Source: a virus. Taken from it: a stretch of DNA of 53,686 bases. Below are positions 2,158-17,416 of this stretch, piece by piece (positions within the stretch are counted from its first letter, which is position 1; every line of letters begins with the position of its first letter). Made by a program: the position numbers and the translations under genes. The notes beneath the pieces were generated by a model. That model did not search any database and was not told where the DNA came from. It saw only the letters and a list, made by a program, of their open reading frames with translations. Location: positions 1-53,686 of the IMG/VR virus record IMGVR_UViG_3300036822_000287, one strand, 5' to 3'.

Positions 2158-2593
2158 TACCTTAGAAGTTTGTACCCGATGCTTATTTTCTTAACGCATG
2201 GTAGTTTGATGCTCCCACTTGTTCAAAATATTATTTTTCTGGAAAACCATTTGTATAATGGGGTTAGGGCTTTTTACAGAGATTTTGATTTGGTGGGTTA
2301 CTGAACCTGCTTTTGTGTAATTTGTATTGGTGTTTTCTAGAAAACTTCAAGTTTTATCAGATTACCAAAAGAGATGTTCTGTGAAGAGTGATTGTTGCTG
2401 GGTAAGGTCAATTTGGTTGCCTAAACCGACTTGTCTAAGACGCTCGGAGTTATCAAAAATGAAGTGAAAATGCTGTTCTGGTTATCCGGGAGCGGTCTGT
2501 TGTCTCAGGAACTGTAAGTATCCCAGCTTTAGTTTTATGCACTTTTGAGAGTTCCGGCTTTTGACCTTGGTCCGAAATCAAAGCAGTGCTAAA
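2158..2593. other. Intergenic, no gene seen
   Basis: This AT-rich stretch lies between the fimbrial terminator and the IS remnant. I see no ORF with coding character, no recognisable RNA and no clear promoter. It may be eroded flank of the IS insertion. Confidence 0.5.
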
Positions 2594-3040
2594 TTAGAGA
2601 TCTTCGTCCTTTTGCAGGCTCCGGATAAACTCAGCCGGAATCATGTCATTTAATGATGTATGCGTTCTCTCATGATTTTATTTCCTGCGCCAGTTGTCGA
2701 GTTTGTCTTGCGCATCTTCCAGTGGGGGAACCAGTGAAAGTTCTGGCATTCATCCCGCAGACTACCTTTAAATGATTCAATCAACGGGTTATCTGCCGGC
2801 TTTCCGGGGCGAGAGAAGTCCATCGTCATTCCATTTTCATACGCCCATTTATCCAAACTCTTTGAGATAAATTCACTGCCGTTATCTGTCTGAATACGCA
2901 CTGGCTGGCGTTGAATCAGTACCCGTAATTATTCCATCACACCGACTACATCCTCGCCTTTAAGTGATTTTCCGGCGTGCATCGGCAGGCACCCACGACT
3001 AAAATTATCCACTACAGTTGCCTGAACACCGAAAAAGAAG
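2594..3040 (-). pseudogene. IS3-family transposase (OrfB) remnant
   Basis: Read leftward, the pieces spell the C-terminal half of an IS3-family DDE integrase: V-V-D-N-F-S-R, then I-Q-T-D-N-G-S-E-F (second catalytic Asp), then L-I-E-S-F-K-G-S-L-R-D-E-C (catalytic Glu), and at the end A-E-F-I-R-S-L-Q-K-D-E-D-L followed by a stop at 2594-2596. It is disrupted by an in-frame stop at 2929-2931 (V-M-E-stop-L-R) and by frame changes near 2690-2730, where the expected W-F-L-S-L-E-D-A-Q segment is split over frames. OrfA, the N-terminal half of OrfB and terminal inverted repeats are not recognisable. It is an inactive relic, consistent with past insertion between the fimbrial locus and the phage-derived block. 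Confidence 0.85.
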
Positions 3041-3436: not shown

Positions 3437-4363
3437 ATGACTGATGGTATTCGCCCTGATGGCGCAATATTTGCTTCTAAGGCCCCTGTAGGCGAAATAG
3501 AGGATTTTCCCTCTATAAACCGTGGCTGGGGCGTCACTTTTGATGGGAATGATGAAAATGGAGACACTGTCGCCAGTGCGACCAACGGGATCCCGCCGAT
3601 GGAGTGGGATAACGGGCAGCGTAATAAGGTGGACAATAATATCTGGTGGCTTATGCAGCATGCAATTCCTGACTGGTCTGAAGGTACATGGGCCGCAGGT
3701 GCATTTGTTCGATATAACAGTTGGGTCTATTTTAATTCAGCAGATATATCAACCTCGGATAGTCCTGATGAAGGGGGGTGGAGCCCTGTCTTGCCACTAA
3801 ACGGTACCGACGGTTACCTCCAAATCAAAAGCAACCTGTCTGAAATTGCTAATGCCGGAGCCGAAGCACAATCAGCTGCACGTCTCAATCTTGGCATTGA
3901 TACGTTGACTATTATGCAAATGATATATCCGATTGGGGCTGTTATACATAACACTGGAAAGAATCCTTCAGAATATCTTGGGTTTGGAGACTGGACTCAG
4001 CGTGCGGGGAGTATTTATGGTTCAGGTAATGTTACAGACTCTAATGGCGTAGTTCAGGCGCTTGAAGGAGGGGCGATTGCTGGCAACTGGCGCATTCTTC
4101 ACTCTCAAATACAAACTCAAGCTTATAGCTTTACAACTTCGGATGATGCACATAGCCATACTTATAACCAATTTTTAATTGATGGGCATAATGGCACTGA
4201 CAGTAACGATAACAATTATCAAAATGTTCTGAATCCCAGAACGTCAAGTACCGTAACATCATCAGATACTCACAATCATACCGGGAGCATCAGTGTTGGT
4301 GGAAATTTGTCCAACTATTACCAGCCAGGTTATGTTTTCGCCGTATGGGAGCGAATTGCTTGA
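3437..4363 (+). CDS. Tail fibre / collar-domain protein, copy 1
   Basis: A 308-residue protein closely related to the fibre at 14616-15584. Both begin T-x-G-I-R-P-D-G and share G-I-P-P-M-E-W-D-N-G-Q-R-N-K-V-D-N-N-I-W-W-L-M-Q-H-A-I-P. Both have an N-L-S-E-I-A linker (about residue 135), a Y-P-I/V-G-A-V-I collar motif (about 160) and a His-rich C-terminal part ending Y-x-F-x-V-W-E-R. The collar form (T4 gp12-like receptor binding) is known from tail fibres. The histidine pairs (H-S-H-T and H-N-H-T) resemble metal-binding sites that hold trimeric fibre tips together. The start ATG has AGAGAGGATTGAGAA upstream. The C-terminal thirds of the two copies differ strongly, as expected for alternative receptor-binding tips. 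It is the only fibre gene in front of the tail operon and is separated from it by 575 bp. Confidence 0.75.
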   Translation: MTDGIRPDGAIFASKAPVGEIEDFPSINRGWGVTFDGNDENGDTVASATNGIPPMEWDNGQRNKVDNNIWWLMQHAIPDWSEGTWAAGAFVRYNSWVYFNSADISTSDSPDEGGWSPVLPLNGTDGYLQIKSNLSEIANAGAEAQSAARLNLGIDTLTIMQMIYPIGAVIHNTGKNPSEYLGFGDWTQRAGSIYGSGNVTDSNGVVQALEGGAIAGNWRILHSQIQTQAYSFTTSDDAHSHTYNQFLIDGHNGTDSNDNNYQNVLNPRTSSTVTSSDTHNHTGSISVGGNLSNYYQPGYVFAVWERIA

Positions 4364-4938
4364 GTTATGTTATTAATTGGCTTGTTTAATTTCGCGGTTT
4401 CTTGAAAGGTGCTTTTGAAACTCCAGACTGGAGTATTGTGCATAGATAGGTATTACAGTCCTCACTACCAGGCCTTTTCGAAGGCCCCCGGAGTGACGCC
4501 ACAAATATTCTCGTGGCGAGCGATATCCCAGAGCACTGTGCGGATGTCATTCGTTGTAGTGCTCGAACGCCGCCGAAAGGTTCTTTCCCGCTGTTACGCG
4601 GTACTGACAGGCAACCATTGGGTGTCATTTCTGTTTCGAATCGGAGATATTAACTATGCTAAATGCAGTTTACTTCCTGATTTAATGCAAACTGTAAACC
4701 TGCGGGATTATTACAGTGATTGACATTAACGAGGGGTAATACTAAGTGTCAACTTAAATGCACTGGAAAATAGTATGATTTAATTTTAAATAAACAATCG
4801 ATTGATCGGGAAATTCCAAAGGCGTAATTTAAATTGCATTGTAAAGACTAATATTTTTACTAGTACACATCATGAAGTTTTTTAAATGGATAATCATTCC
4901 CTTAGTTGTCCTGAAACTGGTGGCGGTATGAGGTATAT
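4364..4938. other. Intergenic between fibre copy 1 and the tail operon
   Basis: No supported gene. A 104-codon plus-strand frame at 4409-4723 and an overlapping minus-strand frame have no recognisable domain or ribosome site. The right half (4730-4930) is AT-rich and must contain the tail-operon promoter if one exists, but I cannot pick a convincing -35/-10 pair. A 19-codon hydrophobic peptide frame at 4872-4931 lacks a ribosome site. Confidence 0.4.
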
Positions 4939-5325
4939 ATGAGTGACATTACTATTGAGAACTTTCGAGTTCGTTTTCCAGAGTTCGATGATATTTCTGA
5001 TGAGCGTATTCAACTCGCGCTTGATGATACCCTCCCCTATGTTCCAGAAACCCAATTTGGCGACTTCTACGAGCAGGCTTACTACCACCTCACAGCTGTA
5101 TTTCTGACTGGAATGATTACAACCTCTGGACGTGATGGTACCGGGACGGGGTGCACGGCAGGTGCGTTACCGGTGATATCTCAGCAGGCCGGGAGTGTAA
5201 CACTTCAAACATCTGAACCTTTCTCTGTAAATGATTCCTGTTTTGATACCTGGCTTTCGCTTACTGTTTATGGTCAGAGATTTCTTGCTGCACGTGAACA
5301 GGCATTGGCAGTTAACGGCTCATAA
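4939..5325 (+). CDS. DUF4054 head-tail connector protein
   Basis: A 128-residue protein starting I-E-N-F-R-V-R-F-P-E-F-D-D, followed by an acidic helix (D-E-R-I-Q-L-A-L-D-D-T) and G-D-F-Y-E-Q-A-Y-Y-H-L-T-A. This is the DUF4054 pattern, a family found between capsid and tail genes and thought to act in head-tail joining. A ribosome site (GAGG) lies 7 nt before the ATG. It opens the operon, which is odd because the portal and capsid genes that normally precede it are absent. In a headless particle it would either be vestigial or cap the tail. Family assignment is by pattern. Confidence 0.75.
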   Translation: MSDITIENFRVRFPEFDDISDERIQLALDDTLPYVPETQFGDFYEQAYYHLTAVFLTGMITTSGRDGTGTGCTAGALPVISQQAGSVTLQTSEPFSVNDSCFDTWLSLTVYGQRFLAAREQALAVNGS

Positions 5326-5376
5326 TTAACATCTGGCTTTGCTGAATTTTTATTTTTCAGAAATACAGGCGGCACC

Positions 5377-5730
5377 ATGATTATTAATCTAAATCCTGTT
5401 GTGAGTGGTTTATTAAGCCAGCCTTTTACGGTTTCGCATCCCGTTGAAAATGACTGGTCTGAATCAAGAGATGAAATAGCCTGTGTTGGTATTATTTCTA
5501 CTGGTCAACCTGACAATGCGCAATTTCTACCAGAAGGTACTCGTCTCCACAATTCCATCGAAATATATTCAGCGTCTGCTGTGAATTTTGGTGATGTGGT
5601 CAATTACCGCAATCAGTCCTTTAAAACCGTTCACTGTCAGGATCACACCGATTATGGCTATCACTACGCTCTCGCGGTTCTCATTAACGAGCCTGCAAAC
5701 CCTGCTGGAACAGGCTTTATCGACGTCTGA
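5377..5730 (+). CDS. Neck / head-closure-like phage protein
   Basis: A 117-residue protein with no signal or membrane segment. The C-terminal part (V-V-N-Y-R-N-Q-S-F-K-T-V-H-C-Q-D-H-T-D-Y) has the alternating pattern of small beta-barrel head-closure proteins, and its place between the connector and the tail terminator fits that role. I do not recognise a named family, so the role is inferred from position. Its 3' end overlaps the next gene by 77 bp in another frame, which suggests translational coupling. Confidence 0.55.
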   Translation: MIINLNPVVSGLLSQPFTVSHPVENDWSESRDEIACVGIISTGQPDNAQFLPEGTRLHNSIEIYSASAVNFGDVVNYRNQSFKTVHCQDHTDYGYHYALAVLINEPANPAGTGFIDV

Positions 5731-6187
5731 GCAATCGATTGTATTTCATCTGGCAGAGGCCGGAGATGCAGTGACGGCGGGACCATTTATGACCCTGTCA
5801 CTGAATAATGTAAAAAACCCGGGGATTTCGCAGCGTATTCAGGTGGATGACCTCAGTGAGGAAATTCATCAGCCCTGCCTCGGACAGTGCGTTATTCAGG
5901 CTTTTGGCAGCGGCGCATTTGCCCAACTCTCACGGTTAAGTGCCTGGACTGCATCAAGTGCAGGTGGTGAGGCGTTACGAAGCATCGGTGTTACCTGTCT
6001 CCTGGTCAGTGATATTGCGAACACCTCTGCTCCTGTTGCCAGTGGGTATGAAGAGCGCGCCACGATAAGTCTGGCACTGGCCTGGACCGATATTTATCAG
6101 ATTGAACAAACAACTATCAGTGAAGTGCCAATCACCGTACTGGCTGATAACCCTGCAGTACAAATCGATATCGTTGTTACCAAATAA
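5654..6187 (+). CDS. Tail neck-terminator-like protein
   Basis: A 177-residue protein. I chose the ATG at 5654 (CAGGATCAC upstream) because from there the sequence reads S-L-T-S-L-Q-T-L-L-E-Q-A-L, a normal amphipathic helix; the longer frame from 5588 has shadow-like composition. Its position just before the sheath gene matches the tail/neck terminator that caps the tube in DUF3383-type contractile phages. The later part has beta-rich segments and ends V-Q-I-D-I-V-V-T-K. Only 10 bp separate it from the sheath start. The role is inferred from position and general resemblance. Confidence 0.6.
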   Translation: MAITTLSRFSLTSLQTLLEQALSTSEQSIVFHLAEAGDAVTAGPFMTLSLNNVKNPGISQRIQVDDLSEEIHQPCLGQCVIQAFGSGAFAQLSRLSAWTASSAGGEALRSIGVTCLLVSDIANTSAPVASGYEERATISLALAWTDIYQIEQTTISEVPITVLADNPAVQIDIVVTK

Positions 6188-6197
6188 GAGGATTACT

Positions 6198-7331
6198 ATG
6201 AGTCTGTCACTGGACAATGTCATCAGTGTGACGGTGAACCCACCGGCTGATGTCGTCTCTACCGCTGATTTTGGCACTGTCGTTATTTTTTCACCGGATA
6301 TTTTTATTGCAGCCCTGGATACCCAGGCGTACCTCCAGTATTCGAGCCTGGTTGCCTTCCAGCAGGACTTTCCCCAGGACTCTACACCGGACAGCCTGAC
6401 GCAGACGGTTGAGTATTTCTTCTCACAACCTAAGCGTCCGTCGAAGCTCTATCTTGCACCATGGAATGTTGAGGACAACCAGACACTGGCGGATGCCTAC
6501 GCCACGCTCTCCTCCAGTTGGGATGGCTGGTATTGCGCCGTTCCGGTAGGACATGTCGCCGAGCCTGAAGAACTGCTGGAGGCCGCACAATGGATCCAGG
6601 CAGCATCCAAAATCCAGGCAATCAGCGATGGTGCGGCGAGTGACACGACCCCGTCGACCAGTACTCTAAAACCGCTTATTGATGCCGAATTGTACCGTTC
6701 TCTCGTGCTGTGGTCTTCGGCGTTAACGGATGCAGGCTCTTCCCCGGTAATTTCCGCTGCTGCGTTACTGTGCTCTATCAATTTTAATGCACCAAACAGT
6801 ATGCTGACCCTGAAGTTTAAAGATTTGCCCGGCGTGACGACAGATGACGCTATTACTGACACCATCGCTGATTCGTTAACTCAACAGGGAGTTAACTATT
6901 TCACCACGTTTGGCACTAAGCGCATGCTGGCAGAAGGCTGGATGCTTGGGGCAACAATGTGGGCCGATGAGGTGATTGGCCTTGACTGGCTGCGCAGCGA
7001 ACTGCAGACCAGTGTGTTTAACGGACTTTCAACCCTGGACCGCATCCCACTCAGCGATCAGGGCGTGGCGACAGTGATGAACTATGTCGATACCGCAATG
7101 CGAAAAGCCTTACGCAATGGCCTGATTGGTCCGGGAGTATGGGAAGGAAATGCGGTGGGTGCGCTGAATACTGGCGATTATCTGGAGAACGGCTATTACA
7201 TCTACGCCGACTCAGTCTCCACGCTTTCTGAAGACGATCGCAAGAACCGTAAATGCCCACCAATTACTGTCTGCGCACATATCGCTGGCGCTATACACAG
7301 CGTAGTCATCAACGTTAACACGTCTCGCTAA
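6198..7331 (+). CDS. Tail sheath-like protein (DUF3383)
   Basis: A 377-residue protein beginning M-S-L-S-L-D-N-V-I-S-V-T-V-N. The layout matches the DUF3383 family, which takes the sheath role in one group of contractile tails: the F-G-T-V-V-I-F segment, T-Q-T-V-E-Y-F-F-S-Q (repeated load-bearing helix), L-Y-L-A-P-W, G-V-N-Y-F-T-T-F-G and a C-terminal N-G-Y-Y-I-Y-A-D. The start at 6198 is preferred over an upstream in-frame ATG because AGAGGATT lies just before it. The sheath surrounds the tube and contracts on binding. It is unrelated in sequence to the second sheath in this window (34710-36557), so the region encodes two independent contractile systems. Confidence 0.85.
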   Translation: MSLSLDNVISVTVNPPADVVSTADFGTVVIFSPDIFIAALDTQAYLQYSSLVAFQQDFPQDSTPDSLTQTVEYFFSQPKRPSKLYLAPWNVEDNQTLADAYATLSSSWDGWYCAVPVGHVAEPEELLEAAQWIQAASKIQAISDGAASDTTPSTSTLKPLIDAELYRSLVLWSSALTDAGSSPVISAAALLCSINFNAPNSMLTLKFKDLPGVTTDDAITDTIADSLTQQGVNYFTTFGTKRMLAEGWMLGATMWADEVIGLDWLRSELQTSVFNGLSTLDRIPLSDQGVATVMNYVDTAMRKALRNGLIGPGVWEGNAVGALNTGDYLENGYYIYADSVSTLSEDDRKNRKCPPITVCAHIAGAIHSVVINVNTSR

Positions 7332-7341
7332 GGGGAATTCC

Positions 7342-7776
7342 GTGGCTTATTTCGATATCAAACAGGTCAACCTCAGCCTGAACACGCGCGCTATTACCGG
7401 CCTTACCACCGACAACGATGCCATCTCATTAAAATCCACGAAAGATGCTGGCGCATGGACGCTGGGTGCAAGTGGAAGTGGGGTATGGACTGCAAATTCG
7501 GATACCTCAGGCACACTGACGCTAAAACTGGTGCAAAACCACCCGGATAATGCCTGGCTTAGCCAGCAATTCGCCCTGCAGCGCAATGACCTGCGGGCAT
7601 TCACGCCGTTTGCGCTCGTGATCCGTGATTTGCTAAACAACGATTTGGTGATGGCCAGTAACGGCATGTTCTCTACACCGTTGACCTTTACCCGCGGAGC
7701 ACAGCCGAACGTCAGCCTCTGGACCATCGCTTTCGAATCCGTCCAGTTGACGCTGGCACCAGGCTACGGGAACTGA
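7342..7776 (+). CDS. Tail tube-like protein (DUF3277)
   Basis: A 144-residue protein that starts at a GTG with AAGGGGAATTC upstream. The pattern A-Y-F-D-I-K-Q-V-N-L-S-L-N, then L-T-L-K-L-V-Q-N-H-P-D-N-A-W-L-S, then D-L-L-N-N-D-L-V-M-A-S and W-T-I-A-F-E-S is that of the DUF3277 structural family, which forms the inner tube in phages with DUF3383 sheaths. The gene directly follows the sheath with a 10-bp gap, the usual order. It is uninterrupted. Confidence 0.8.
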   Translation: MAYFDIKQVNLSLNTRAITGLTTDNDAISLKSTKDAGAWTLGASGSGVWTANSDTSGTLTLKLVQNHPDNAWLSQQFALQRNDLRAFTPFALVIRDLLNNDLVMASNGMFSTPLTFTRGAQPNVSLWTIAFESVQLTLAPGYGN

Positions 7777-7782
7777 TAACCG

Positions 7783-8268
7783 ATGGAAGCGCAGAAAACT
7801 CTGATTCTCGACGGCGTAAGCTACATCATGAGCCCGGCCAATGCGTTCAGTGCGTGGGAAAACCTGCAGAAGCTGCTGGGAGCGATTGGTCGTTCGAAGA
7901 TGGATCACCCGGGGGATGGTTCAATGGCAAGTGCTATTGGCCTTGCATTCTCTGTGATGGATACGCACGAGCTAACGAACATTCAGCGAATGGTGTTCGA
8001 CTACACCGTTGTGAAACCTGTCGAGGGCAATCCTTTCAAACTCAGCGATGGCGCCGAGACGCATTTTAATCAGTATCGCGCTCATCTGCCGACGCTGTTA
8101 GTGGAGGGGGTTATCTACCAGTTCGAGGATTTTTTTACTGGTATCCGCGACGTACTGACCGGTTTGTTTCCGGGCATGACGGAGATGCTGCGCTTCCTGG
8201 AGCAGGCCCGGAAAATGGTCACGACGCCATTATCACCCACAGCTCCGGGAGTGGAGACGACGGCGTAG
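7783..8268 (+). CDS. Tail assembly chaperone (short form)
   Basis: A 161-residue protein placed between tube and tape measure, where long-tailed phages carry the G/GT-type assembly chaperone. It is helix-rich (A-N-A-F-S-A-W-E-N-L-Q-K-L-L near residue 20) and has no signal or membrane segment. Near codon 118 the message holds seven T (8130-8136) that sit in frame as T TTT TTT, an ideal -1 slip site. The -1 frame is then open to 8420 and ends in a normal-looking protein segment, so a longer fusion product is expected (next entry). The family coats the tape measure and recruits tube protein. Confidence 0.7.
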   Translation: MEAQKTLILDGVSYIMSPANAFSAWENLQKLLGAIGRSKMDHPGDGSMASAIGLAFSVMDTHELTNIQRMVFDYTVVKPVEGNPFKLSDGAETHFNQYRAHLPTLLVEGVIYQFEDFFTGIRDVLTGLFPGMTEMLRFLEQARKMVTTPLSPTAPGVETTA

Positions 8269-8420
8269 ACTGGTTTATCTGGACGCCGGTTACCCGGCGT
8301 TTTTGTACGCTGCATGAGCTGCGTACTGTCTACAGTCTTGCCGATCTGATGGCCATGCATGATGCAATCCATGCAATGAATCAGCATGCTCTTGCCAGCC
8401 AGACTGGTGAGAAAGGCTGA
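8136..8420 (+). CDS. -1 frameshift extension of the tail assembly chaperone
   Basis: After a -1 slip in the T run at 8130-8136 the reading frame stays open to a TGA at 8418-8420. From about 8265 it reads V-D-W-F-I-W-T-P-V-T-R-R-F-C-T-L-H-E-L, then L-A-D-L-M-A-M-H-D-A-I. This resembles the small DUF6889-type proteins found after tail chaperone genes. There is no ATG, GTG or TTG in this frame that would give a separate gene, which favours frameshifting over an independent start. Between the slip site and 8260 the overlapping part looks low in information, as expected where two frames share DNA. Programmed frameshifting at this position is conserved among tailed phages. Confidence 0.6.
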   Translation, partial: YWYPRRTDRFVSGHDGDAALPGAGPENGHDAIITHSSGSGDDGVDWFIWTPVTRRFCTLHELRTVYSLADLMAMHDAIHAMNQHALASQTGEKG

Positions 8421-8450
8421 GAATGTGTTGTTACGCATTCAGGGGAAAGA

Positions 8451-9752
8451 ATGGTTATTGATGAATTTCTTCAGGCTCTTGGCGTGGAAAGTCTGCCTAC
8501 AGATTTTCAGTCATTAGATGCTTCTGTTGTGCAAAACAGTACAGCCCTGCTGGATGTAGCCAGTCTGTGTGCCGGGCTGTCAGATGCGCTGAATCAGGCT
8601 CAACAGAGTGTCAGTTTCTTCGGCACACAAACCGTTACGCTGGCAACGTTAATGCAGCAAGCGGCTGAGAGCGGAATATCAACGCTGCAAAATGAGCCGA
8701 TACAGACGGTTCTCGCTCAGGTTCAGCCTGGGGCTTCCGGCACATCAACCCTGGCAGCAACTCCTGCTTCGCCATCCCTGTTCACATCAGCCTCCGCGGC
8801 GTTTGGTGATCTGGATGACCAGTCGGTACGTCTGGCTCAAAGCTGGCAGGCATTTTTGCAGAACCAGGACGTCGGGGCTTTTGCACAGTCGCTGAGCGAT
8901 ATCGGCAGCGCGGTAGCAGGCGATGCCGATCAACTGACAAGTGCGAAACAGGAAGTCATGGACTTCTTTAACAGCATCAATGACGGAATTGCGTTTTTCG
9001 AAGAGTTACAGACTGTCATTACTGCTGTGGGTGAGGCCGAAGGTTTTGCCGCCACGATGGGAGAGTTGATGGCGTTGCCCTTCACCGCAATTGCAGCCGC
9101 TATTGTGGCCGTCGGTGCCGCGCTGGTTTATGCCTATCAGCAATACCAGGCGTTCAAACAGGGGGCCACTGATGGCCTGTTATACGACGTTTTCACCGGG
9201 TTCAGTGAATTACTGGTTAGTATTAGTGGCCTCTGGCGCTATGTGATGGACGAAGCCATTGAGAGTCTGCTCAAAATCAAATCAAATCTGCCAGGCTTTG
9301 CAGGCGGCGGTCTGAGTGATGAAGAGCAGGTGAGACTGACCCAATTGCAAAAACAGACCGCAAAAGGGTTGTCAGGTTATCAGAATACGGCTGTCACTCA
9401 GTATAAAAATGAGCGCCATGCCATTGAGGCCAAAGCCCGTGAGCAGAAAGCCAAAACACCCGCACCGCAACCTGCTCCTGCGCTTTCAGCGCTGCTCCCT
9501 TCACCCAATGCACTTTCTAACATTCCCGCGCACGGTGCGCTGACGCATCGCTCCCCAATGGCGGCAGCTTCGGTGGGACCATCAGGCGTGGAGCCTTCCG
9601 GCAGCACTCAGTTCTATATCGACACCCTCAATGTGACGGCAGATTCACCAGCTGAACTGGCCAGCAGCGTCGCACAGGAAGCCGATGTCGTTCATTCCCG
9701 GCATGTCTCTACCATGCTGAATTATTCCCGTGGGAAAGGAGTCAGACCATGA
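8451..9752 (+). CDS. Tape measure protein (short)
   Basis: A 433-residue protein, rich in Ala, Gln and Ser. It has a long helical N-terminal half, a hydrophobic segment at about 206-226 (L-P-F-T-A-I-A-A-A-I-V-A-V-G) and a Pro/Ala-rich linker near 340-380. Its position after the chaperone and before the Dit-like gene identifies it as the tape measure. Tail length scales with tape-measure length, so this would be a short tail; the Mu-like prophage tape measure (44930-47221) is 763 residues. The start is an ATG with GGGGAAAGA upstream. It overlaps the next gene by 4 bp (ATGA). Confidence 0.75.
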   Translation: MVIDEFLQALGVESLPTDFQSLDASVVQNSTALLDVASLCAGLSDALNQAQQSVSFFGTQTVTLATLMQQAAESGISTLQNEPIQTVLAQVQPGASGTSTLAATPASPSLFTSASAAFGDLDDQSVRLAQSWQAFLQNQDVGAFAQSLSDIGSAVAGDADQLTSAKQEVMDFFNSINDGIAFFEELQTVITAVGEAEGFAATMGELMALPFTAIAAAIVAVGAALVYAYQQYQAFKQGATDGLLYDVFTGFSELLVSISGLWRYVMDEAIESLLKIKSNLPGFAGGGLSDEEQVRLTQLQKQTAKGLSGYQNTAVTQYKNERHAIEAKAREQKAKTPAPQPAPALSALLPSPNALSNIPAHGALTHRSPMAAASVGPSGVEPSGSTQFYIDTLNVTADSPAELASSVAQEADVVHSRHVSTMLNYSRGKGVRP

Positions 9753-10543
9753 CTGAACAGGCCTTCATCTGGACGGAGACTGGCAGCACGTTTGCGCTGG
9801 ATGCCACGACCACAGAAAATCATGCCCGAACCTCACAAACGACGAGTAACCCCGTAGAGAGTGGCGCGGTGATTTCCGACCACACGATTATTGCACCCGC
9901 AACACTGACGCTGACTGGCGTGATGGTTGACGTCAATTCTGCGAAACCGCCACTGGAGAAACTGACGGGCGTGCTTCAGGCATTCATCGATAATCCGAAT
10001 TTCATTGATGATATCTCCATCCCCGGGACTCTGAAAAACATCACCGACCAGACCGTGGAATTCGTCGATCGCTCCATTGACCTGATTGCGACGACCATCT
10101 CCAGTCTTGTTGATGGCGTGAGCAGTGAGCAACGGGCCCTGGCGCCCTGGATCCCCACACTGTTCCCCTCCGATGCAGTCGATTTCAGTGACGGAAAGCT
10201 GCGGATTGCGCAGGCCTATGATCAGCTGTTTGCGATTCAGAAGTCAGGGTTGCCTGTCTCGGTGGTGACCTCTACGGCGCTTTACAGCAACATGATCATT
10301 ACCAGCGTCAAGGTCGATATTGATGCCTCTAAAGGGAATTTCGCCGTGTTTACCCTGGCGTTTCAGGAAGTTTTGATCGTAGATACGCAAAACACGAGTA
10401 TGACCAACACTCAGCATTCACAGCTCATTGGTACCTGTAGCGGCAGAACGGCTGCACAGACGGCAGCGCCACGCAATGCCGGGGAAGTAACGCCAACCAC
10501 CGTCAGTGAGTCTGATGCTGCTAAGTGGGGAGAAGTGTTATGA
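9749..10543 (+). CDS. Dit-like baseplate/hub protein
   Basis: A 264-residue protein that starts F-I-W-T-E-T-G-S-T-F-A-L-D. The N-terminal domain reads as a Dit-like domain (S-N-P-V-E-S-G-A-V-I-S-D-H, then T-L-T-L-T-G-V-M-V-D-V). It is followed by a helical stretch around residues 95-125 and a beta-rich part (I-I-T-S-V-K-V-D-I-D and F-T-L-A-F-Q-E-V). This kind of protein sits after the tape measure and links the tube end to the baseplate hub. Its start overlaps the tape-measure stop and its stop overlaps the next ATG, so translation is tightly coupled. Confidence 0.65.
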   Translation: MTEQAFIWTETGSTFALDATTTENHARTSQTTSNPVESGAVISDHTIIAPATLTLTGVMVDVNSAKPPLEKLTGVLQAFIDNPNFIDDISIPGTLKNITDQTVEFVDRSIDLIATTISSLVDGVSSEQRALAPWIPTLFPSDAVDFSDGKLRIAQAYDQLFAIQKSGLPVSVVTSTALYSNMIITSVKVDIDASKGNFAVFTLAFQEVLIVDTQNTSMTNTQHSQLIGTCSGRTAAQTAAPRNAGEVTPTTVSESDAAKWGEVL

Positions 10544-10854
10544 ACATCTGGAAAATTCCGGTAAACAGTTCCCCCCGCCAGAGCATGCGCTTTCAGGTCG
10601 GCGACCTGCACGTAGGGCTTACGCTGTACTACAACCCGGTACCGGACGGTGGCACATGGGTGATGGATTTAATCGATGCCGACAGCAATGACGTTCTGGT
10701 GAGTGGATATAGTCTGGTCTGTGGTGTCCCTATTCTTAAACGCACCACGCTGCCGTTCTGGTTTCGTCTTGTAGATATCAGCGGACTGCATCTGAACCCC
10801 TATAACGGCAATGATCTGGGCACCCGCTGTCTGCTCTATGTCGTGGAGAAATAA
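10540..10854 (+). CDS. Baseplate plug-like protein
   Basis: A 104-residue protein. The ATG at 10540 overlaps the upstream TGA, and I prefer it to an in-frame ATG at 10525. The sequence (I-P-V-N-S-S-P-R-Q-S-M-R-F, then L-T-L-Y-Y-N, W-V-M-D-L-I-D-A-D, and near the end N-D-L-G-T-R-C-L-L-Y-V-V) fits the small beta-barrel plug family (Pam3 gp18-like) that closes the hub beneath the tape measure. Its position between the Dit-like and hub genes agrees. It ends 1 bp before the next start. Confidence 0.6.
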   Translation: MNIWKIPVNSSPRQSMRFQVGDLHVGLTLYYNPVPDGGTWVMDLIDADSNDVLVSGYSLVCGVPILKRTTLPFWFRLVDISGLHLNPYNGNDLGTRCLLYVVEK

Positions 10855-10855
10855 G

Positions 10856-11803
10856 ATGCGGGAATATGGACGTCAGTATGTACTGCAGATTGGTGAAGAT
10901 GGTGATGCCTTGATCATCAATAATCTGCGCATCAACTTTTCCTTCAGCCACACACACGACAAGACGGCGAATACCGGCACCATTAAGGTGTACAACCTCA
11001 GTCGGGATACCATAAATCAGATCCAGACAGGCAAAGCTGACCGCTACCACCAGGTCACATTGTCGGTGGGTTACGGCGATCTGAACGATGTGCGAACGCT
11101 GTTTACCGGACAGCTGAGCAATGCAGTGGTCAACAAGGGAGGCTCCGCTACACAGACATCTACTCCTGCGACCGGACAAACGACCAAAGCCGGCGCAAGC
11201 ACGTCAGGCGCTGAAGTGGATTCCATACTGGAATTGACCTGCGACGACGGCGGTGTGGCATCGCGTAACGCCATGATGAACACCTCCTTTGCTGCAGGCA
11301 GTTCTCATGCTGAGCTGGTGAAAGCCTGCGCATCAACAATGACGGGTGTGATCCCCGGACTGGTGGGAATTGCCAGCAATCTGGTGCTGACCCGGGGTCG
11401 CGTCTGCTATGGCATGACGCGCCATATCCTGACGCAAATTGCCAGTCATCATGACGCAGACTGGTCCATTCAGCATGGCTATCTGATGATTATGGCATCT
11501 GATTATGTTCGCCCGGAGTCGGCCGTGGTGCTGAGCCAGCAAACGGGCATGATTGGCGCGCCCAAAAAATCGGGAGACAAGGTGACGGTGACCTGCCTGT
11601 TACGCCCGGAGATTCTGATTCACTCGAAAGTCCGGATAGATTCCATCAATGACAGCTTTGATGGGGAGTACAAAGTAGTGGATATAAAATCAGAAGGCGA
11701 TACGCACGCTAATTCCTGGAAAAGCACGCTGGAGCTGAAACTCCCTGAAAGTGGTGCGTTTAAATCCGCTACCAAGGCCAATTCCGCCGGAGGAAAAGCA
11801 TGA
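10856..11803 (+). CDS. Baseplate hub protein (gp27-like)
   Basis: A 315-residue protein. I chose the ATG at 10856, 1 bp after the upstream stop (GAGAAATAAG before it), over an in-frame ATG at 10811. It starts E-Y-G-R-Q-Y-V-L-Q-I-G, contains N-T-G-T-I-K-V-Y-N-L-S (about 42-52) and F-T-G-Q-L (about 83-87), and has a Ser/Thr/Ala linker (about 95-118) before two more domains. This is the general pattern of hub proteins in the gp27/D class that form the cup under the tube and hold the spike. The spike gene follows with a 4-bp overlap. Confidence 0.65.
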   Translation: MREYGRQYVLQIGEDGDALIINNLRINFSFSHTHDKTANTGTIKVYNLSRDTINQIQTGKADRYHQVTLSVGYGDLNDVRTLFTGQLSNAVVNKGGSATQTSTPATGQTTKAGASTSGAEVDSILELTCDDGGVASRNAMMNTSFAAGSSHAELVKACASTMTGVIPGLVGIASNLVLTRGRVCYGMTRHILTQIASHHDADWSIQHGYLMIMASDYVRPESAVVLSQQTGMIGAPKKSGDKVTVTCLLRPEILIHSKVRIDSINDSFDGEYKVVDIKSEGDTHANSWKSTLELKLPESGAFKSATKANSAGGKA

Positions 11804-12540
11804 TCTACCCACGAGAAAATACCTCCCTGGAAGGCATCATTAATAACGCGCTCGCCGATCACGCAACCCATTTTCGCGTGGCAGTACCTGGCATTATTGA
11901 CAGTTTTGATGCTGTTAAACAAACAGCCACCGTAATTGTGGCGTGCTCCGGCAGTGACAGCGATGGCAGTGAAATGCGCCTGCCGCCGTTGCTCGACGTA
12001 CCAGTAAGCTTCCCTCGTGGTGGTGGATTTGCCGTCACTTTTCCGGTTGTACCGGGTGATGAAGGCCTGCTTGTCTTTTCCGATCGCTGCATTGATGGCT
12101 GGCATCAAAACGGCAAGCCGGGTATTCCGCCGGACTATCGTCTGCATGATTTGAGTGATGCCAGTTTTATTCCGGGTATAAGTTCGCTGGGACGCGTCAT
12201 TTCTGAACACCGCACTGACGCGATTATGTTGCGCCAGCTCGACGGGAACGGCTATGTGTCCATTGACACTGACGGCAATGTCGATATCGATGGGGCAATA
12301 CTGCGGGTGCATTGTCCGGTTGAATTTATGCAATCCGTCACGATGGATGACACGCTGAATGTCGCTAAAACCCTGACTTACCAGGGGGGTATGAGCGGCA
12401 GCGGTGGTGATGGTGTTGTGGCTTCCTTCAATGGTGCTATCACCGTGAACGGGGATGCCATTATCAGCAATATCAGCTACGGCGGCCACACCCATCAGGA
12501 ACATGGGGATGGCGGCGGGATCACAGGAGGACCGCAATGA
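11800..12540 (+). CDS. Membrane-puncturing spike (gp138 family)
   Basis: A 246-residue protein. The N-terminal OB-like domain (residues about 15-110: F-R-V-A-V-P-G-I-I-D-S-F-D, then L-P-P-L-L-D-V-P-V-S-F-P-R-G-G-G, then G-D-E-G-L-L-V-F-S-D-R) is the gp138 N-terminal domain. It is followed by a beta-helical part with repeated D-G-N-G, D-G-N-V and D-G-A motifs and a tip region G-G-H-T-H-Q-E-H with histidines in HxH spacing, which bind a metal ion in such spikes. It is the tail tip that pierces the outer membrane. It overlaps both neighbours by 4 bp. Confidence 0.8.
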   Translation: MIYPRENTSLEGIINNALADHATHFRVAVPGIIDSFDAVKQTATVIVACSGSDSDGSEMRLPPLLDVPVSFPRGGGFAVTFPVVPGDEGLLVFSDRCIDGWHQNGKPGIPPDYRLHDLSDASFIPGISSLGRVISEHRTDAIMLRQLDGNGYVSIDTDGNVDIDGAILRVHCPVEFMQSVTMDDTLNVAKTLTYQGGMSGSGGDGVVASFNGAITVNGDAIISNISYGGHTHQEHGDGGGITGGPQ

Positions 12541-12884
12541 GAACCCGGAGAATCAATGACAATAATGACTGGCTTTTCGGCGCCGGTCGCCAGAGTTATC
12601 TCTCTGGCTCTGACGCGGTGGCACAGAAGGTGTTAACCCGACTTCAGTCATTTAAAGGAAACTGGTTTTTAAATCTCGACGCCGGTATCAACTGGGTTGC
12701 TGAGATGGAACAACGCGGTCAGCAACCTTTACTGGAAGCCAGTGTAAAAACAACCATTCTGAATACCCGGGGCGTGGTATCGCTTAATACCTTCAGTCCG
12801 TCATGGGACGCCCGCAACCGGAAATTAACCATCACTGCCAGCTACACCGATATCTACGGTGTTACAAATGAGGTCACGGTGTAA
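12537..12884 (+). CDS. Baseplate wedge protein (gp25/W-like)
   Basis: A 115-residue protein with D-A-V-A-Q-K-V-L-T-R-L-Q, then W-F-L-N-L-D-A-G-I-N-W, and a C-terminal R-K-L-T-I-T-A-S-Y-T-D-I-Y-G. This is the gp25 fold found at the centre of all contractile baseplates, where it contacts the first sheath ring. The start overlaps the spike stop and its last base is the first base of the J gene (GTAATGG), the usual W-J coupling. Confidence 0.75.
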   Translation: MRTRRINDNNDWLFGAGRQSYLSGSDAVAQKVLTRLQSFKGNWFLNLDAGINWVAEMEQRGQQPLLEASVKTTILNTRGVVSLNTFSPSWDARNRKLTITASYTDIYGVTNEVTV

Positions 12885-14035
12885 TGGGACAGTTAACCCC
12901 TCAGGGCTATGTAGCCGATACGTTTAATGACATCTTCAACCAGTTTATTACCGGCCTGAAAGGTATCTATGGCGATGATATCCTGGTCGATCCGGACGAC
13001 CCGGATGGACAACTTGCCGGTATCCTGGCACAAATGCGTGCCGATATCGAAGGCACAATTCTGGCAATTTATCAGGCAAACGATCCGGATAATGCTACGG
13101 GAGCGTGGCTTGAGCAGAAAGTCGCTTATGCCGGGCTTGAACGCCGTGCCGCTCAGTATTCCTACCTTCGCGATGTTGCGTTGACCGGATCGGCCGGGGT
13201 GCTGATTAAATCGGGCGCTATTGTCCGTGATGACAGCGGTGTCCAGTGGATAAGTCAGACCGATGTGACGCTTGATGATGACGGAAATGGCGTTCAGGAT
13301 TTTCGCTCGCAGTCACTCGGGCAATATCAGGTGGCCGCCCATATTTCACTGACTATCATGACGGTAGTCGCGGGCTGGCAGACAGCGGCCACACAATACT
13401 CGTCAGAGACCGGGCTCGAAGAGGAAACTGACCCCCAGCTTCTGGCTCGCTTTTACCGTTCGCGCAGCAAACCCGCTGTGAACTGTGTGGATGGTACGGT
13501 GGCGGATATTTATGCTCTGCCAGATGTCAGTGAAGTGGTGTCCCTCGAAAACAGCAGCGACGAAGTCGATGGCAATGGCGTGAATGCACATACGGTCAAT
13601 TATGTTGTTGATGGCGGCGATAATTCTCAGATTGCGAAAGCCATATACCGCAACTGGCCGGGAACAGGCCTGCAGGGCGATATTTCTGTGCCGGTGACTC
13701 GCTACAGTGGCAATACCGTCGATATTCAGTTTGACCGGCCCACCCCCGTGGATGTGTCCACGGAGATAACTGTTGGCCGACGTAAGAATTTCACGTATGT
13801 CGACACCACCCAGATAATCGCTCAGGTGATGAGTATGCAGTTCTCTATTGGTGAATCCGTTTATCAGGCGGATATTTCAGATGTCGTGAATCAGACCTCC
13901 GGTGTGTATGTGAAATCGATTTTACTGGGGCGTGACGGTGATGAGCTGGCTGACATCGACGTACTGAAGATGACTGCCCGCGAAAAGGCCCGTTTCCTTA
14001 GTGGCAATGTCACTGTGACCGTGGTGGACGAATGA
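12884..14035 (+). CDS. Baseplate protein J
   Basis: A 383-residue protein of the J/gp47 family. It begins L-T-P-Q-G-Y-V-A-D-T-F-N and has the usual D-P-D-D-P-D-G-Q-L-A-G-I-L, A-Y-A-G-L-E-R-R, E-T-G-L-E-E-E-T-D-P-Q-L-L-A-R-F-Y-R and a V-S-L-E-N-S-S-D motif. The protein forms the baseplate wedge arms with the gp25-like protein and the following DUF2612 protein. Length and order are normal. It ends 1 bp before the next start. Confidence 0.85.
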   Translation: MGQLTPQGYVADTFNDIFNQFITGLKGIYGDDILVDPDDPDGQLAGILAQMRADIEGTILAIYQANDPDNATGAWLEQKVAYAGLERRAAQYSYLRDVALTGSAGVLIKSGAIVRDDSGVQWISQTDVTLDDDGNGVQDFRSQSLGQYQVAAHISLTIMTVVAGWQTAATQYSSETGLEEETDPQLLARFYRSRSKPAVNCVDGTVADIYALPDVSEVVSLENSSDEVDGNGVNAHTVNYVVDGGDNSQIAKAIYRNWPGTGLQGDISVPVTRYSGNTVDIQFDRPTPVDVSTEITVGRRKNFTYVDTTQIIAQVMSMQFSIGESVYQADISDVVNQTSGVYVKSILLGRDGDELADIDVLKMTAREKARFLSGNVTVTVVDE

Positions 14036-14036
14036 T

Positions 14037-14612
14037 ATGGCTGAATATGCAGACCTTCTGATCGTCCAGTATGCCGGTAAGCCGAATGCTACCGCGACCA
14101 TCCGGTTGTTGAGCGAGCAGTGGACGCAGTCATTTGAGGGGGCCACCAGTATTCCGGAAATGCTCAATATCGATACTGCGGCAGGCGTGAACCTGAATAT
14201 CGTGGGGAAAATCGTAGGACAGGACCGCACGTTGCCCGCGGCTGTTCCCCGGGAGTTTTTTGCTTTTGAAGGCAACCTCACAACCAAAGGGTACCAGGCA
14301 AACGGACAAGGAGGGTCACCCTGGTACCGGAAAGGAGATGCCCTTGAAAGTTCTGGTGAACTCTCCGATTCGGAAATGCGCATTCTAATCAAAGCGCGAA
14401 CCATCAAAAACTTCAGCCGCTGCAGCATGGATGATGTCGAGCGTGCCTGTGAAGTGCTGTTTGGCAAGAATGGGTATCAGATAACGGTAACAGCCCCCTG
14501 CGTCTGGACCATTACCACACAGCGTGCAGACCCATTTGTGCTGTACGCCGCTCAGGAACTGGACGTTCTGCCCAGAGCTGCGGGCGTTCGCTATGAATTT
14601 ACAGAGGAGTAA
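14037..14612 (+). CDS. Baseplate protein, DUF2612 (P2 I-like)
   Basis: A 191-residue protein with Y-A-D-L-L-I-V-Q-Y-x-G-K-P-N-A, then N-I-V-G-K-I-V-G-Q-D-R, and S-D-S-E-M-R-I-L-I-K-A-R. This is the DUF2612 pattern; the family takes the place of P2 gpI, joining the J wedge to the tail fibre. The order J, DUF2612, fibre supports this. The start is 1 bp after the J stop, and the fibre gene begins 3 bp after its stop. Confidence 0.8.
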   Translation: MAEYADLLIVQYAGKPNATATIRLLSEQWTQSFEGATSIPEMLNIDTAAGVNLNIVGKIVGQDRTLPAAVPREFFAFEGNLTTKGYQANGQGGSPWYRKGDALESSGELSDSEMRILIKARTIKNFSRCSMDDVERACEVLFGKNGYQITVTAPCVWTITTQRADPFVLYAAQELDVLPRAAGVRYEFTEE

Positions 14613-14615
14613 ACC

Positions 14616-15584
14616 ATGACTCAAGGTATCCGCCCGGACGGGCAAATTTTTGCTTCTGACGCCAGTGACGGTGAGCTGGAAGCCTTCCCGGCAACTGCTC
14701 GTGGCTGGGGTGTGACCGTCGATGGGAAAGATGAAGCTGGTAATAGTGTTGTTGAAGCCACCAATGGCATCCCACCGATGGAGTGGGATAACGGGCAACG
14801 TAATAAAGTGGACAATAATATCTGGTGGTTGATGCAGCATGCCATTCCGGAGTGGCAGGCTGGTAACTGGGATGCCGGTGCGTTTGTACGGTATAACTCT
14901 GTGGTGTATTACAACGCAACGGATGCGGAAATCTCAGGTGAGCCAGGGGACAGTGCTGACTGGACATCGATACTTCCATTGAATGGGGCTGATGGTCGTT
15001 ATTTGCAGGTGAATAACAACTTGTCGGAGATTGCGGCGAAGGGGGCTGATGCGCAAACTCAGGCCCGTATAAATCTTGGTTTGAATGATACAGATGCAAT
15101 CACAAAATTAATTTACCCTGTTGGTGCCGTAATAATGAATAAAGGGACTAATCCTGCAACATATTTAGGGTTTGGGACATGGACACAAAGGAGTGGCGCT
15201 ATTTATGGTGGCGGGAGCGTAACTGATTCCGATAGCAATATACAGACGTTTGCTACAGGGAGTGTCTCTGGTTATTTTAGAGCTCATCGCTCTCATTTAT
15301 ATAGCGACTCGATATCGGTGAGTGTTAGCGGTACCACTAATAGTACAGGGGGCCACTTACATGCTGCGCCAGTTGAGAAAGGAAATGGTCCAACTGCCTC
15401 TCAATCAATTGCAGGTAGTGCCTGGGGAGGATCGCGAGAAAATACGACAACTAATGCAGGGACATCCACTGATGGAGCGCATACACATACTGTTACAAGC
15501 TCCGGGTCTTTTTCCCTAGGCGCAAATACCAATAACTTTGTAACACCTGGTTATGCATTTTCTGTATGGGAACGGACGGCATAA
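14616..15584 (+). CDS. Tail fibre / collar-domain protein, copy 2
   Basis: A 322-residue paralogue of the fibre at 3437-4363 and the one that belongs to this operon by position. The N-terminal 150 residues of the two align along their length (Q-G-I-R-P-D-G-Q-I-F-A, G-I-P-P-M-E-W-D-N-G-Q, N-L-S-E-I-A). The collar motif Y-P-V-G-A-V-I-M-N-K-G is near residue 168, and the C-terminus is Gly/Thr/His-rich (G-G-H-L-H-A-A, D-G-A-H-T-H-T-V) and ends F-S-V-W-E-R-T-A. The C-terminal halves of the copies differ. The start has ACAGAGGAGT upstream. Each paired-histidine site may bind metal in the trimer tip. No fibre chaperone gene follows. Confidence 0.8.
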   Translation: MTQGIRPDGQIFASDASDGELEAFPATARGWGVTVDGKDEAGNSVVEATNGIPPMEWDNGQRNKVDNNIWWLMQHAIPEWQAGNWDAGAFVRYNSVVYYNATDAEISGEPGDSADWTSILPLNGADGRYLQVNNNLSEIAAKGADAQTQARINLGLNDTDAITKLIYPVGAVIMNKGTNPATYLGFGTWTQRSGAIYGGGSVTDSDSNIQTFATGSVSGYFRAHRSHLYSDSISVSVSGTTNSTGGHLHAAPVEKGNGPTASQSIAGSAWGGSRENTTTNAGTSTDGAHTHTVTSSGSFSLGANTNNFVTPGYAFSVWERTA

Positions 15585-15778
15585 TAAAATTCATATCATC
15601 CAAATTGCTTGGAATGCTGTTAAACAACACATGAAGTTAAACATCATTCCACATAGGATACCCTCCCTCAGAACTGAACTCATCATAGCTGAACACTTTT
15701 AGATTTCTTAAAAGTGTTCAATAACACTGTATAAAAATCATAATAAATGCCATAGTAGTATTAAATTTCTCTAATCAA

Positions 15779-16686
15779 ATGAAAAACATGTTAATCTCTA
15801 AATTTCTGCATTGGGAAGAGTGTTCGTTAAAAAGTTATGGAACTGTTTGCCAGCTTTAAGGTTTTAATTGCGAATCATCTCCCGAATTCTTATCGTTTAT
15901 GATGCGCCATAATTCTCCTTTACGTTTTTTTGAATATAAAAGAAAAGGAAATATCCTTGGTGGGGTTTGCGTTGACCAAGGGTGGCTTGCAAATGATATA
16001 AAGAATAAAAATAGGTCTTTGCAGTCATTACCAATCCCAACAGCTTCAATCTACCTTCCTTTCGACATGAACTCGCCAGGGGAATCAATAATCCCATTTA
16101 AATCTAAATGCTTGCACCCACTTCAAAAAGACTTATTTGTAAACACTTCTTATAATTTATTTAGTAAGCGAAAAATTGGTTTGGTAAAATCTTTTCCTTC
16201 GGGCTTCTCCAAGAAAACAATATCTACTCGCGAAAGAGAAATTAGAAAGTTCCTTGCTGTTGGTGGAGCATTTGTTCCCATCAGTGATTTGGATAGTAAT
16301 TATTTCTTCGATATATATCGAGAGTTGTTTTTCGCTCGACGTAAACGAGAGATCATTGAACAAGATTTAAATAGGATTTTTTCAATGAGTTTCATCATTG
16401 TTTTAAAGGTGATGTTATTTTTTTAAATAATGAATCTATAGCGATCCAATTACTTCTTTCTGTATCTAGTCAAGCAGGTTACTTTGTGGATTTCATTAAT
16501 ATAGGCTACACACAAGAAAGCCCGCTAAATTCGTTGGGTACTATACTCATGTGGCGAAATCTAACTTCGCTGACAGCTGAAGCCGCTGAAAAAAATCAGA
16601 ATCTGTTCTACTCTTATGGATTTATGTCTGGGGAGTACAAAACTAGATGGTGTAACTCTTTATCTGTAGGGCGTGCTATATGTTGA
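15779..16686 (+). pseudogene. Mig-14-family protein, broken
   Basis: Translating through the breaks gives about 302 residues, the length of the Mig-14 family (FemX/GNAT-like acyltransferase fold; known in Salmonella for resistance to antimicrobial peptides). From the ATG at 15779 the frame reads L-H-W-E-E-C-S-L-K-S-Y-G, then a TAA at 15857-15859, then resumes with S-P-E-F-L-S-F-M-M. It runs to about 16376, where a T run needs one more T (I-F-F-N-E-F-H-H-C-F-K-G-D-V-I-F-L-N-N). The last part (A-I-Q-L-L, F-V-D-F-I-N-I-G-Y, M-S-G-E-Y-K-T-R-W-C) matches conserved Mig-14 features as I recall them. It is AT-richer than the tail genes. It has two lesions, so it is a relic. It sits exactly between the two phage-derived blocks. 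Confidence 0.75.
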
Positions 16687-17230
16687 TTACTCAATGTTAG
16701 GATAGTGCACTTGAGGTTGAGGCTGTATCCGTTGTACAACTTTGTTACACGTTTAAAACGCAGCGGCAGTCCTTACTTACCTTGGAGGTCGTAAATACGT
16801 ATATGGCTATAATGCGAGCTTTCTAACATAAGTGACTTCTTTTTCTAAATTCAATATGCTGTGATTCGAGTAATAAAAATCCTCTCTGAGAGGTATTCTT
16901 GAATAAATCATATTTGCAAAAAATTCTCGAAACAAGTTGGTACCAGTCGGGCGGTACGCATATTTTCAGACATATCAGTCTTCGTCATTTTATTCAGCGC
17001 AATCACCATGAGTCATAGCCTCCGCAACACGCAGTATCAATGAACATCCGAGTAACTGTTTTACCCGCACATCGCCGTTTCCACTATCGAGCCTGTCTAT
17101 TTCCACCACGCTTATTCCCGCTCAGCCGCTGATTAGCAACAGCACGGTTACGATCTATGTACCCACCCAGCCAGTACTCTGCCCCCTTTGGGCAGGTATG
17201 AGAGCACTGATTTACTTACTATTGAGATGT
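16687..17230. other. Intergenic between the mig-14 relic and the Mu-like left end
   Basis: No gene is supported on either strand; all frames have stops at short intervals. A hairpin CTGCCC-N5-GGGCAG (17179-17195) has no T run. The base composition becomes more even from about 16980, which may mark other eroded DNA, but I recognise nothing in it. The junction between host DNA and the Mu-like element should be near the right end of this stretch. Confidence 0.45.
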
Positions 17231-17236
17231 GCGATC

Positions 17237-17371: not shown

Positions 17372-17416
17372 CCCGGAGGTGTCAGCCAAAGAAATTACAG
17401 ATACAAGGGTACCACT

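What the first reader, a model, noticed from the sequence alone, without database searches (positions are those of the whole stretch)
3437..15584. Headless contractile-tail locus with intact genes between broken ones
All tail genes from connector to fibre are open and coupled, but head, packaging, lysogeny and lysis genes are missing, and the neighbours on both sides (adhesin, IS, mig-14-like) are broken. This contrast suggests selection to keep the tail, as in R-type tailocins, from a DUF3383/DUF3277 lineage distinct from P2-type pyocins.
Basis: partly seen in the sequence, partly recalled or inferred. Interest (0 to 1): 0.75.

Follow-up and report, generated by a model that had tools for sequence, protein, structure and literature searches.

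The report
Headless phage tail kept by bacteria
A bacterium carries a complete set of genes for a phage's contractile tail but none for its head, and a second strain carries the same headless set, kept intact by selection, so it probably makes a tail-shaped weapon (a tailocin) from a phage lineage for which I found no tailocin described.

Summary
Window 4939-15584 encodes a full simple-myophage (Pam3/E217-type, DUF3383 sheath) tail from head-tail adaptor to fibre, with every frame open. No head, packaging, integrase, repressor or lysis gene of that lineage was found in the 53.7-kb window. A second contig (L002) carries the same gene set with the same missing neck gene and the same mig-14-like neighbour. 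Between the two copies no tail gene is broken, and dN/dS is 0.088 (95% CI 0.067-0.113) over the seven slowly diverged genes; neutral drift would have produced dozens of stop codons. Sister phages with 55-65% identical sheaths carry heads and a tape measure of about 600 aa; the headless pair share a distinct one of about 435 aa. Best reading: a domesticated R-type tailocin from a DUF3383 lineage, a new variant of a known kind. Linked lysis and regulatory genes are absent; particles and killing are untested. The mig-14-like gene beside the fibre (broken in the window, intact in L002) belongs to a GNAT-like family also found beside a fibre in another prophage and in a Xenorhabdus tailocin locus; it may be a fibre-linked surface-modifying immunity gene. 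The host is unidentified, and only two copies are known.

The parts
3437..4363 (+). fibA: second tail-fibre gene (308 aa, Gp10_C domain), paralogue of fibB in its first ~150 aa; intact here, cut by an IS in L002
   Evidence: Pfam PF21939 E=1.2e-7; 79% DNA identity to fibB over 198 bp; L002 keeps only its 3' end next to an IS
4364..4938 (.). 575-bp mostly non-coding stretch between fibA and the operon, 81-93% conserved in L002; likely carries the promoter (inferred)
4939..5325 (+). DUF4054 head-tail adaptor (Ad1-like), 128 aa
   Evidence: PF13262 E=1.4e-15; phrog_302; dN/dS 0.063, CI 0.018-0.135
5377..5730 (+). head-tail adaptor / tail completion protein (phrog_939)
   Evidence: the neck1 gene that sits between it and Ad1 in sister phages is absent here and in L002
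5654..6187 (+). tail terminator
   Evidence: PF23961 E=4.7e-12
6198..7331 (+). tail sheath (DUF3383), 377 aa
   Evidence: PF11863 E=2.4e-59; Pam3 sheath in PDB E=1.4e-25 with the profile
7342..7776 (+). tail tube (KPP10_Orf10 family)
   Evidence: PF11681 E=6.4e-11
7783..8268 (+). tail assembly chaperone, zero-frame product
   Evidence: PF10876 E=5.2e-18
8240..8420 (+). -1 frame extension of the tail chaperone (WFIWTPV...), start approximate
   Evidence: same extension in L002 and in the complete phage L003; slippery site not identified
8451..9752 (+). tape measure protein, 433 aa (592-606 aa in sister phages)
   Evidence: phrog_1272 E=2e-5; lengths
9749..10543 (+). Dit-like tube initiator
   Evidence: PF21821 E=1.8e-28
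10525..10854 (+). baseplate plug (Pam3 gp18 family)
   Evidence: PF22479 E=9e-15
10856..11803 (+). baseplate hub (E217 gp41 family)
   Evidence: PF22759 E=1.5e-14; phrog_196 E=6e-63
11800..12540 (+). membrane-puncturing spike (xxxxx family)
   Evidence: PF18352 E=5.3e-34
12537..12884 (+). baseplate wedge 1 (W/gp25-like)
   Evidence: phrog_120 E=9.8e-28
12884..14035 (+). baseplate wedge 2 (J-like)
   Evidence: PF04865 E=2.4e-13; PDB baseplate wedge matches
14037..14612 (+). baseplate wedge 3 (DUF2612)
   Evidence: PF11041 E=9.5e-35
14616..15584 (+). fibB: tail fibre, 322 aa, Gp10_C domain; no fibre-assembly chaperone follows
   Evidence: PF21939 E=2.2e-8
15779..16687 (+). mig-14-like gene (GNAT-like family), broken here by a stop and a frameshift; intact 302 aa in L002

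Best explanation
The locus is a domesticated, headless contractile tail that works like an R-type tailocin. A prophage of the DUF3383 simple-myophage lineage lost its head, packaging, neck, lysogeny and lysis genes before the two known copies separated. What remains builds a short tail: tube and sheath assembled around a ~435-residue tape measure, a Pam3/E217-type baseplate and fibres ending in Gp10_C tips. Released by lysis, the fibres would bind a surface sugar of a competing strain, the sheath contract, and the spike-tipped empty tube puncture and depolarise the membrane. Shown: gene content, absence of head and lysis genes of this lineage from the window, shared structure of both copies, intact frames, purifying selection. 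Inferred: particle assembly, release (lysis genes must act in trans, for example from another prophage), killing, and target. Inferred more weakly: the adjacent mig-14-like gene modifies the producer's own surface and protects it.
For: Complete tail gene set with no relic of the lineage's head genes. Second copy L002 with the same order, the same loss of neck1 with the same 51-bp junction, and the same fibA remnant and mig-14-like neighbour. No lesion in 15 genes of either copy against about 33-98 nonsense mutations expected at 10-30% neutral divergence. dN/dS 0.088 (0.067-0.113) in the slowly diverged genes, 0.037 in the sheath, 0.18 in the fast central block, while mig-14 and the adhesin nearby have decayed in the window. 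Sheath tree: the two headless copies form one clade (support 100/100) among phages that carry heads. The two short tape measures resemble each other (62-63%) and no known phage closely (about 22%).
Against: No lysis, holin, spanin or regulator gene is linked, unlike described tailocin clusters (PMC10870725). Head-tail adaptors are kept under selection (Ad1 dN/dS 0.063) although a free tail should not need a portal-binding adaptor. Only two copies are known, both IMG/VR contigs from unidentified hosts. No LexA-like site or strong promoter stood out above chance. Part of the dN/dS signal, in the fast central block above all, could date from before the head was lost.
Confidence: 0.66

Rival explanations
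1. Tail supplier: the kept tail and its two head-tail adaptors are used by a capsid made elsewhere (a split prophage or a capsid-forming satellite), so the product is a phage-like particle, not a bacteriocin.
For: Both adaptors, Ad1 and phrog_939, are retained and Ad1 is under clear purifying selection; the rest of the genome cannot be searched because G000 is only the 53.7-kb record.
Against: The neck1 gene that lies between the two adaptors in the sister phages is missing in both copies; Ad1 is only about 29% identical to its sister-phage homologue while most other tail genes are 42-66%, as if released from fitting a portal; the nearby Mu-like prophage has its own tail sheath, baseplate and tape measure.
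Confidence: 0.13
2. Ordinary prophage remnant that has lost its head genes recently and has not yet had time to decay.
For: IS elements and broken genes flank the locus; fibA is cut by an IS in L002.
Against: Head loss precedes the split of the two copies, which have since diverged by dS about 0.27 in the slow genes without one lesion and with dN/dS 0.088.
Confidence: 0.09
3. A contractile injection device with another role, for example carrying an effector to other cells or acting inside the producer, rather than killing by puncture.
For: No lysis genes are linked, as in some contractile injection systems that are not tied to a phage lysis cassette (own knowledge).
Against: No effector-like gene, AAA ATPase or other hallmark of such systems was recognised in the locus; baseplate and fibre are plain phage type.
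Confidence: 0.08

Closest known systems
R-type pyocins and other P2-derived tailocins (BceTMilo, xenorhabdicin, pantailocin)
   Same: Headless contractile tail from sheath to fibre on the chromosome, kept intact, derived from a myophage.
   Different: Different tail lineage: DUF3383 sheath and Pam3/E217-type baseplate with no significant match to P2 tail proteins except spike; no linked lysis or regulatory genes, which those clusters have (PMC5411513, PMC10870725, PMC13280938).
Simple myophages: Pam3, E217, ZCSE2 (Loughboroughvirus), SEN34 (Brunovirus), Klebsiella phage Mulock
   Same: Same tail gene order and families; sheath about 30% identical to SEN34, ZCSE2 and Mulock; Pam3 sheath is the nearest solved sheath and its wedge is among the solved relatives.
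   Different: Those are complete phages with terminase or capsid, neck1 and lysis genes; these are absent here.
Sister prophages L003, L005 (IMG/VR), L008 (Pantoea stewartii), L009 (Pseudocitrobacter MAG)
   Same: 55-65% identical sheath, same tail order including the chaperone -1 frame extension (checked in L003).
   Different: Head-side genes wherever the contig covers them (portal, capsid, neck1 or Ad1); tape measure 592-606 aa; in L005 and L008 a fibre chaperone follows the fibre.
Mig-14 family (PF07395)
   Same: P0005 passes the Pfam cut-off (117 bits against 22); weak GNAT/FemX-like resemblance.
   Different: Far below the cut-off for Salmonella Mig-14 proper (114 against 515 bits); placed next to a tail fibre.

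Membership tests
R-type tailocin | Complete contractile tail: tube, sheath, tape measure, baseplate, spike, fibre | tested here: met
R-type tailocin | No capsid, portal or packaging genes with the tail | tested here: met
   for the window; the rest of the genome is not held
R-type tailocin | Maintained by selection and fixed at a locus in several strains | tested here: inconclusive
   two copies with the same neighbour and dN/dS 0.088; no more strains found
R-type tailocin | Linked lysis and regulatory genes | tested here: not met
   none in 3437-17400 or of this lineage in the window; could act in trans
R-type tailocin | Headless particles that kill related bacteria | not testable with these tools
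   needs the bench
P2-type pyocin lineage | Tail proteins homologous to P2 FI, FII, D, J, W, V | tested here: not met
   only spike against gpV at E=6.6e-4
DUF3383 simple-myophage tail lineage | DUF3383 sheath, KPP10_Orf10 tube, Dit-like initiator, Pam3 plug, E217 hub, DUF2612 wedge | tested here: met
   sheath tree
Extracellular contractile injection system (Afp/PVC/AlgoCIS type) | AAA ATPase, cargo or effector genes | tested here: not met
   no such gene recognised among the main ORFs of 3437-16700
Mig-14 family | PF07395 match above the curated cut-off | tested here: met
   117 against 22 bits; not the Mig-14 equivalog

The most novel reading that the evidence does not exclude
The mig-14-like gene is a fibre-linked immunity gene: a GNAT/FemX-like enzyme that alters the producer's own surface sugar or lipid so that the adjacent fibre no longer binds. 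The same fibre-adjacent slot holds an O-acetyltransferase in phage SEN34, an acyltransferase in a Pantoea agglomerans prophage, a second Mig-14 paralogue next to a Gp10_C fibre in another prophage, and glycosyltransferases or a Mig-14 gene in the killing-spectrum modules of Xenorhabdus bovienii tailocins (PMC13280938). Loss of the gene in the window strain would then have to be offset by some other receptor change.
Probability: 0.25. Interest if true: 0.72.

Novelty: new variant of a known kind. Interest (0 to 1): 0.55.

Why it matters
Tailocins are known to have arisen several times, with origins from P2-like, Mu-like and lambda-like tails described (PMC12090994). A selected headless locus from the DUF3383 simple-myophage lineage would add an independent origin whose parts match tails with solved structures (Pam3, E217). 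The literature states that no immunity gene for tailocins is known (PMC8319346); the recurrent pairing of fibre and Mig-14-like or other surface-modifying gene gives a directly testable candidate.

Tried and rejected
P2-type origin: rejected. Supply of tails to the Mu-like prophage in the same window: unlikely, it encodes its own sheath, baseplate and tape measure. SOS control by a LexA box: 27 near-matches against 19 expected by chance, the only exact one inside the tape measure gene. Promoter and terminator scans were no clear help. More copies were sought in E. coli genomes, phages, plasmids, about 390 Enterobacteriaceae and 395 Enterobacterales genomes and IMG/VR; only L002 was found. One genome-contig scan with the sheath found only two sister phages. 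A hit to a 2.7-kb Pantoea alfalfae 'plasmid' is a bare tail fragment, probably an assembly artefact. A DUF535 gene beside the phage in L055 is probably host flank. The Mig-14 structure model has low confidence (pLDDT 45), so its GNAT/FemX matches are only a hint. The sequence profile of the family had no significant PDB match. The host could not be identified. The frameshift slippery site was not located.

Full report
What is there. Window 4939-15584 carries, all on the + strand, a DUF4054 head-tail adaptor, a second adaptor (phrog_939), tail terminator, DUF3383 sheath, tube, tail chaperone, tape measure, Dit-like tube initiator, Pam3-gp18-type plug, E217-gp41-type hub, spike, three wedge proteins and a fibre with a Gp10_C tip; a second fibre gene lies upstream at 3437-4363. 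Structures of relatives exist: the sheath profile matches the Pam3 sheath at E=1.4e-25 and the J-like wedge matches several solved wedges. The 182-bp gap before the tape measure is not empty: its -1 frame encodes an extension of the tail chaperone (WFIWTPV...) that is also present in L002 and in the phage L003, as expected for the frameshifted chaperone of long-tailed phages (compare the annotated frameshift in Mulock).

What is missing. tblastn with terminase, portal, capsid, decoration, neck1, integrase, recombination, antitermination, holin, endolysin and spanin proteins of phages SEN34, Mulock and ZCSE2 and of sister prophages found none in the 53.7-kb window. In the sister phages whose contigs reach that far a neck1 gene lies between Ad1 and the phrog_939 adaptor; here it is gone, leaving 51 bp.

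The neighbours. The fimbrial adhesin (1-1376) has a frameshift, an IS3-type remnant lies at about 2513-3019, and the mig-14-like gene (15779-16687) has an internal stop and a frameshift. From about 17.4 kb to the window's end lies a separate Mu-like transposable prophage; its repressor-like and Mu-transposase-like ORFs I read from the translations, and terminase, capsid, sheath and tape measure are family matches. G000 is an IMG/VR virus record, so no more of the genome can be searched.

A second copy. IMG/VR contig L002 (13 kb) has the same genes in the same order, 60-98% identical, with the same neck1 loss and junction, the same remnant of fibA upstream (cut by an IS) and the same mig-14-like gene downstream, there intact at 302 aa. 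Identity is mosaic: about 0.9-0.99 from Ad1 to sheath and over the chaperone, 0.73 in the tube, 0.56-0.78 from tape measure to hub, 0.76-0.94 from spike to wedges, and 0.83-0.95 at the fibre and mig-14. In every gene compared with the sister phages the two headless copies are nearer to each other than to those phages, most clearly in the tape measure (62-63% against about 22%), so exchange seems to have happened among headless loci.

Selection. All 15 tail genes are intact in both copies. Nei-Gojobori dN/dS is 0.088 (bootstrap 95% CI 0.067-0.113) over 1,473 codons of the seven slowly diverged genes (dS 0.27, close to 0.20 in the mig-14 flank), 0.037 for the sheath, 0.063 for Ad1 and 0.18 for the fast central block. 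A neutral locus of this length would have gathered about 33-98 nonsense changes at 10-30% divergence. Since both copies share the same deletions, the head was most likely lost before they split, so the constraint acted on a headless tail. The caveat is that the central block's divergence may partly predate the loss.

Ancestry. In a maximum-likelihood tree of 32 sheaths the two copies form one clade (100/100) inside a group with prophages that carry head genes, found in Pantoea stewartii, a Pseudocitrobacter MAG and IMG/VR contigs. These have a tape measure of 592-606 aa where it is covered; here it is 433-441, which predicts a shorter tail (inference). Named phages with this tail type are about 30% identical in the sheath. 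P2 tail proteins do not match, apart from the spike at E=6.6e-4. I found no paper in the held library that names DUF3383 together with tailocins; the library lacks most subscription journals, so this is weak evidence of novelty.

How it probably works. As a tailocin: bind, contract, puncture (inferred from established tailocin biology). Release is the gap: described clusters carry lysis and regulatory genes (PMC10870725), this one does not. A lysis cassette shared between two tailocins is known in Pseudomonas chlororaphis (reviewed in PMC12090994), so lysis in trans is plausible. The retained adaptor Ad1 is unexplained; it may have become a tail cap, or the tail may serve a capsid encoded elsewhere.

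The mig-14-like gene. It belongs to PF07395, below the cut-off for Salmonella Mig-14 itself. Family members are rare: 10 of 395 Enterobacterales genomes. One of those genomes has a paralogue immediately beside a Gp10_C fibre at the end of another prophage tail operon. In Xenorhabdus bovienii, a fibre gene and a Mig-14 gene in the tailocin locus were associated with killing spectrum, and another module there carries glycosyltransferases (PMC13280938). A pseudomonad tailocin-sensitivity screen uses the label Mig-14-like for a gene in its heatmap of LPS and other sensitivity loci and states that no tailocin immunity gene is known (PMC8319346). SEN34 and a Pantoea agglomerans prophage have acyltransferases in the same fibre-adjacent slot. 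A weak GNAT hit, a plasmid homologue annotated as GNAT and a low-confidence model matching GNAT, FemX and MprF-type enzymes point to an envelope-modifying enzyme. That it is an immunity gene is a hypothesis, and its loss in the window strain counts somewhat against it.

Verdict. The finding is real and better supported than from one sequence alone: a selected, headless DUF3383 tail. I file it as works like an R-type tailocin, new variant; full membership is not claimed because linked lysis and regulation are absent and killing is untested.

Noticed in passing
window 17432-53686: A Mu-like transposable prophage (repressor-like, Ner-like and MuA-like ORFs, terminase, capsid, own sheath at 34710-36557) with an unusual layout: baseplate J- and D-like genes and the tape measure on the minus strand on either side of plus-strand head genes, and the sheath lying between terminase and capsid. 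No near relative of 17400-42000 among 50,697 phage records.
   Followed up: partly
window 8240-8420: Conserved -1 frame extension of the tail chaperone, kept in both headless copies; no classic slippery heptamer found.
   Followed up: partly
window 7342-14178 compared with L002: Strong mosaic divergence (dS 0.02 to 1.8 between genes) between two otherwise co-linear headless loci, with the tape-measure-to-hub block as an exchange unit.
   Followed up: partly
L102:8789-12493: Two Mig-14 paralogues 1.8 kb apart, one beside host genes (crcB-like) and one at the end of a prophage tail operon with an antirepressor-like gene between them; looks like capture of a host gene by the phage or the reverse.
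   Followed up: partly
window 4409-4723: Conserved but broken sequence between fibA and the tail operon, probably a gene relic of unknown origin.
   Followed up: no
genomes with 364-368 aa sheath frames at about 25% identity: Several Enterobacteriaceae genomes hold a distinct, shorter DUF3383-like sheath family; whether these loci have heads was not checked.
   Followed up: no
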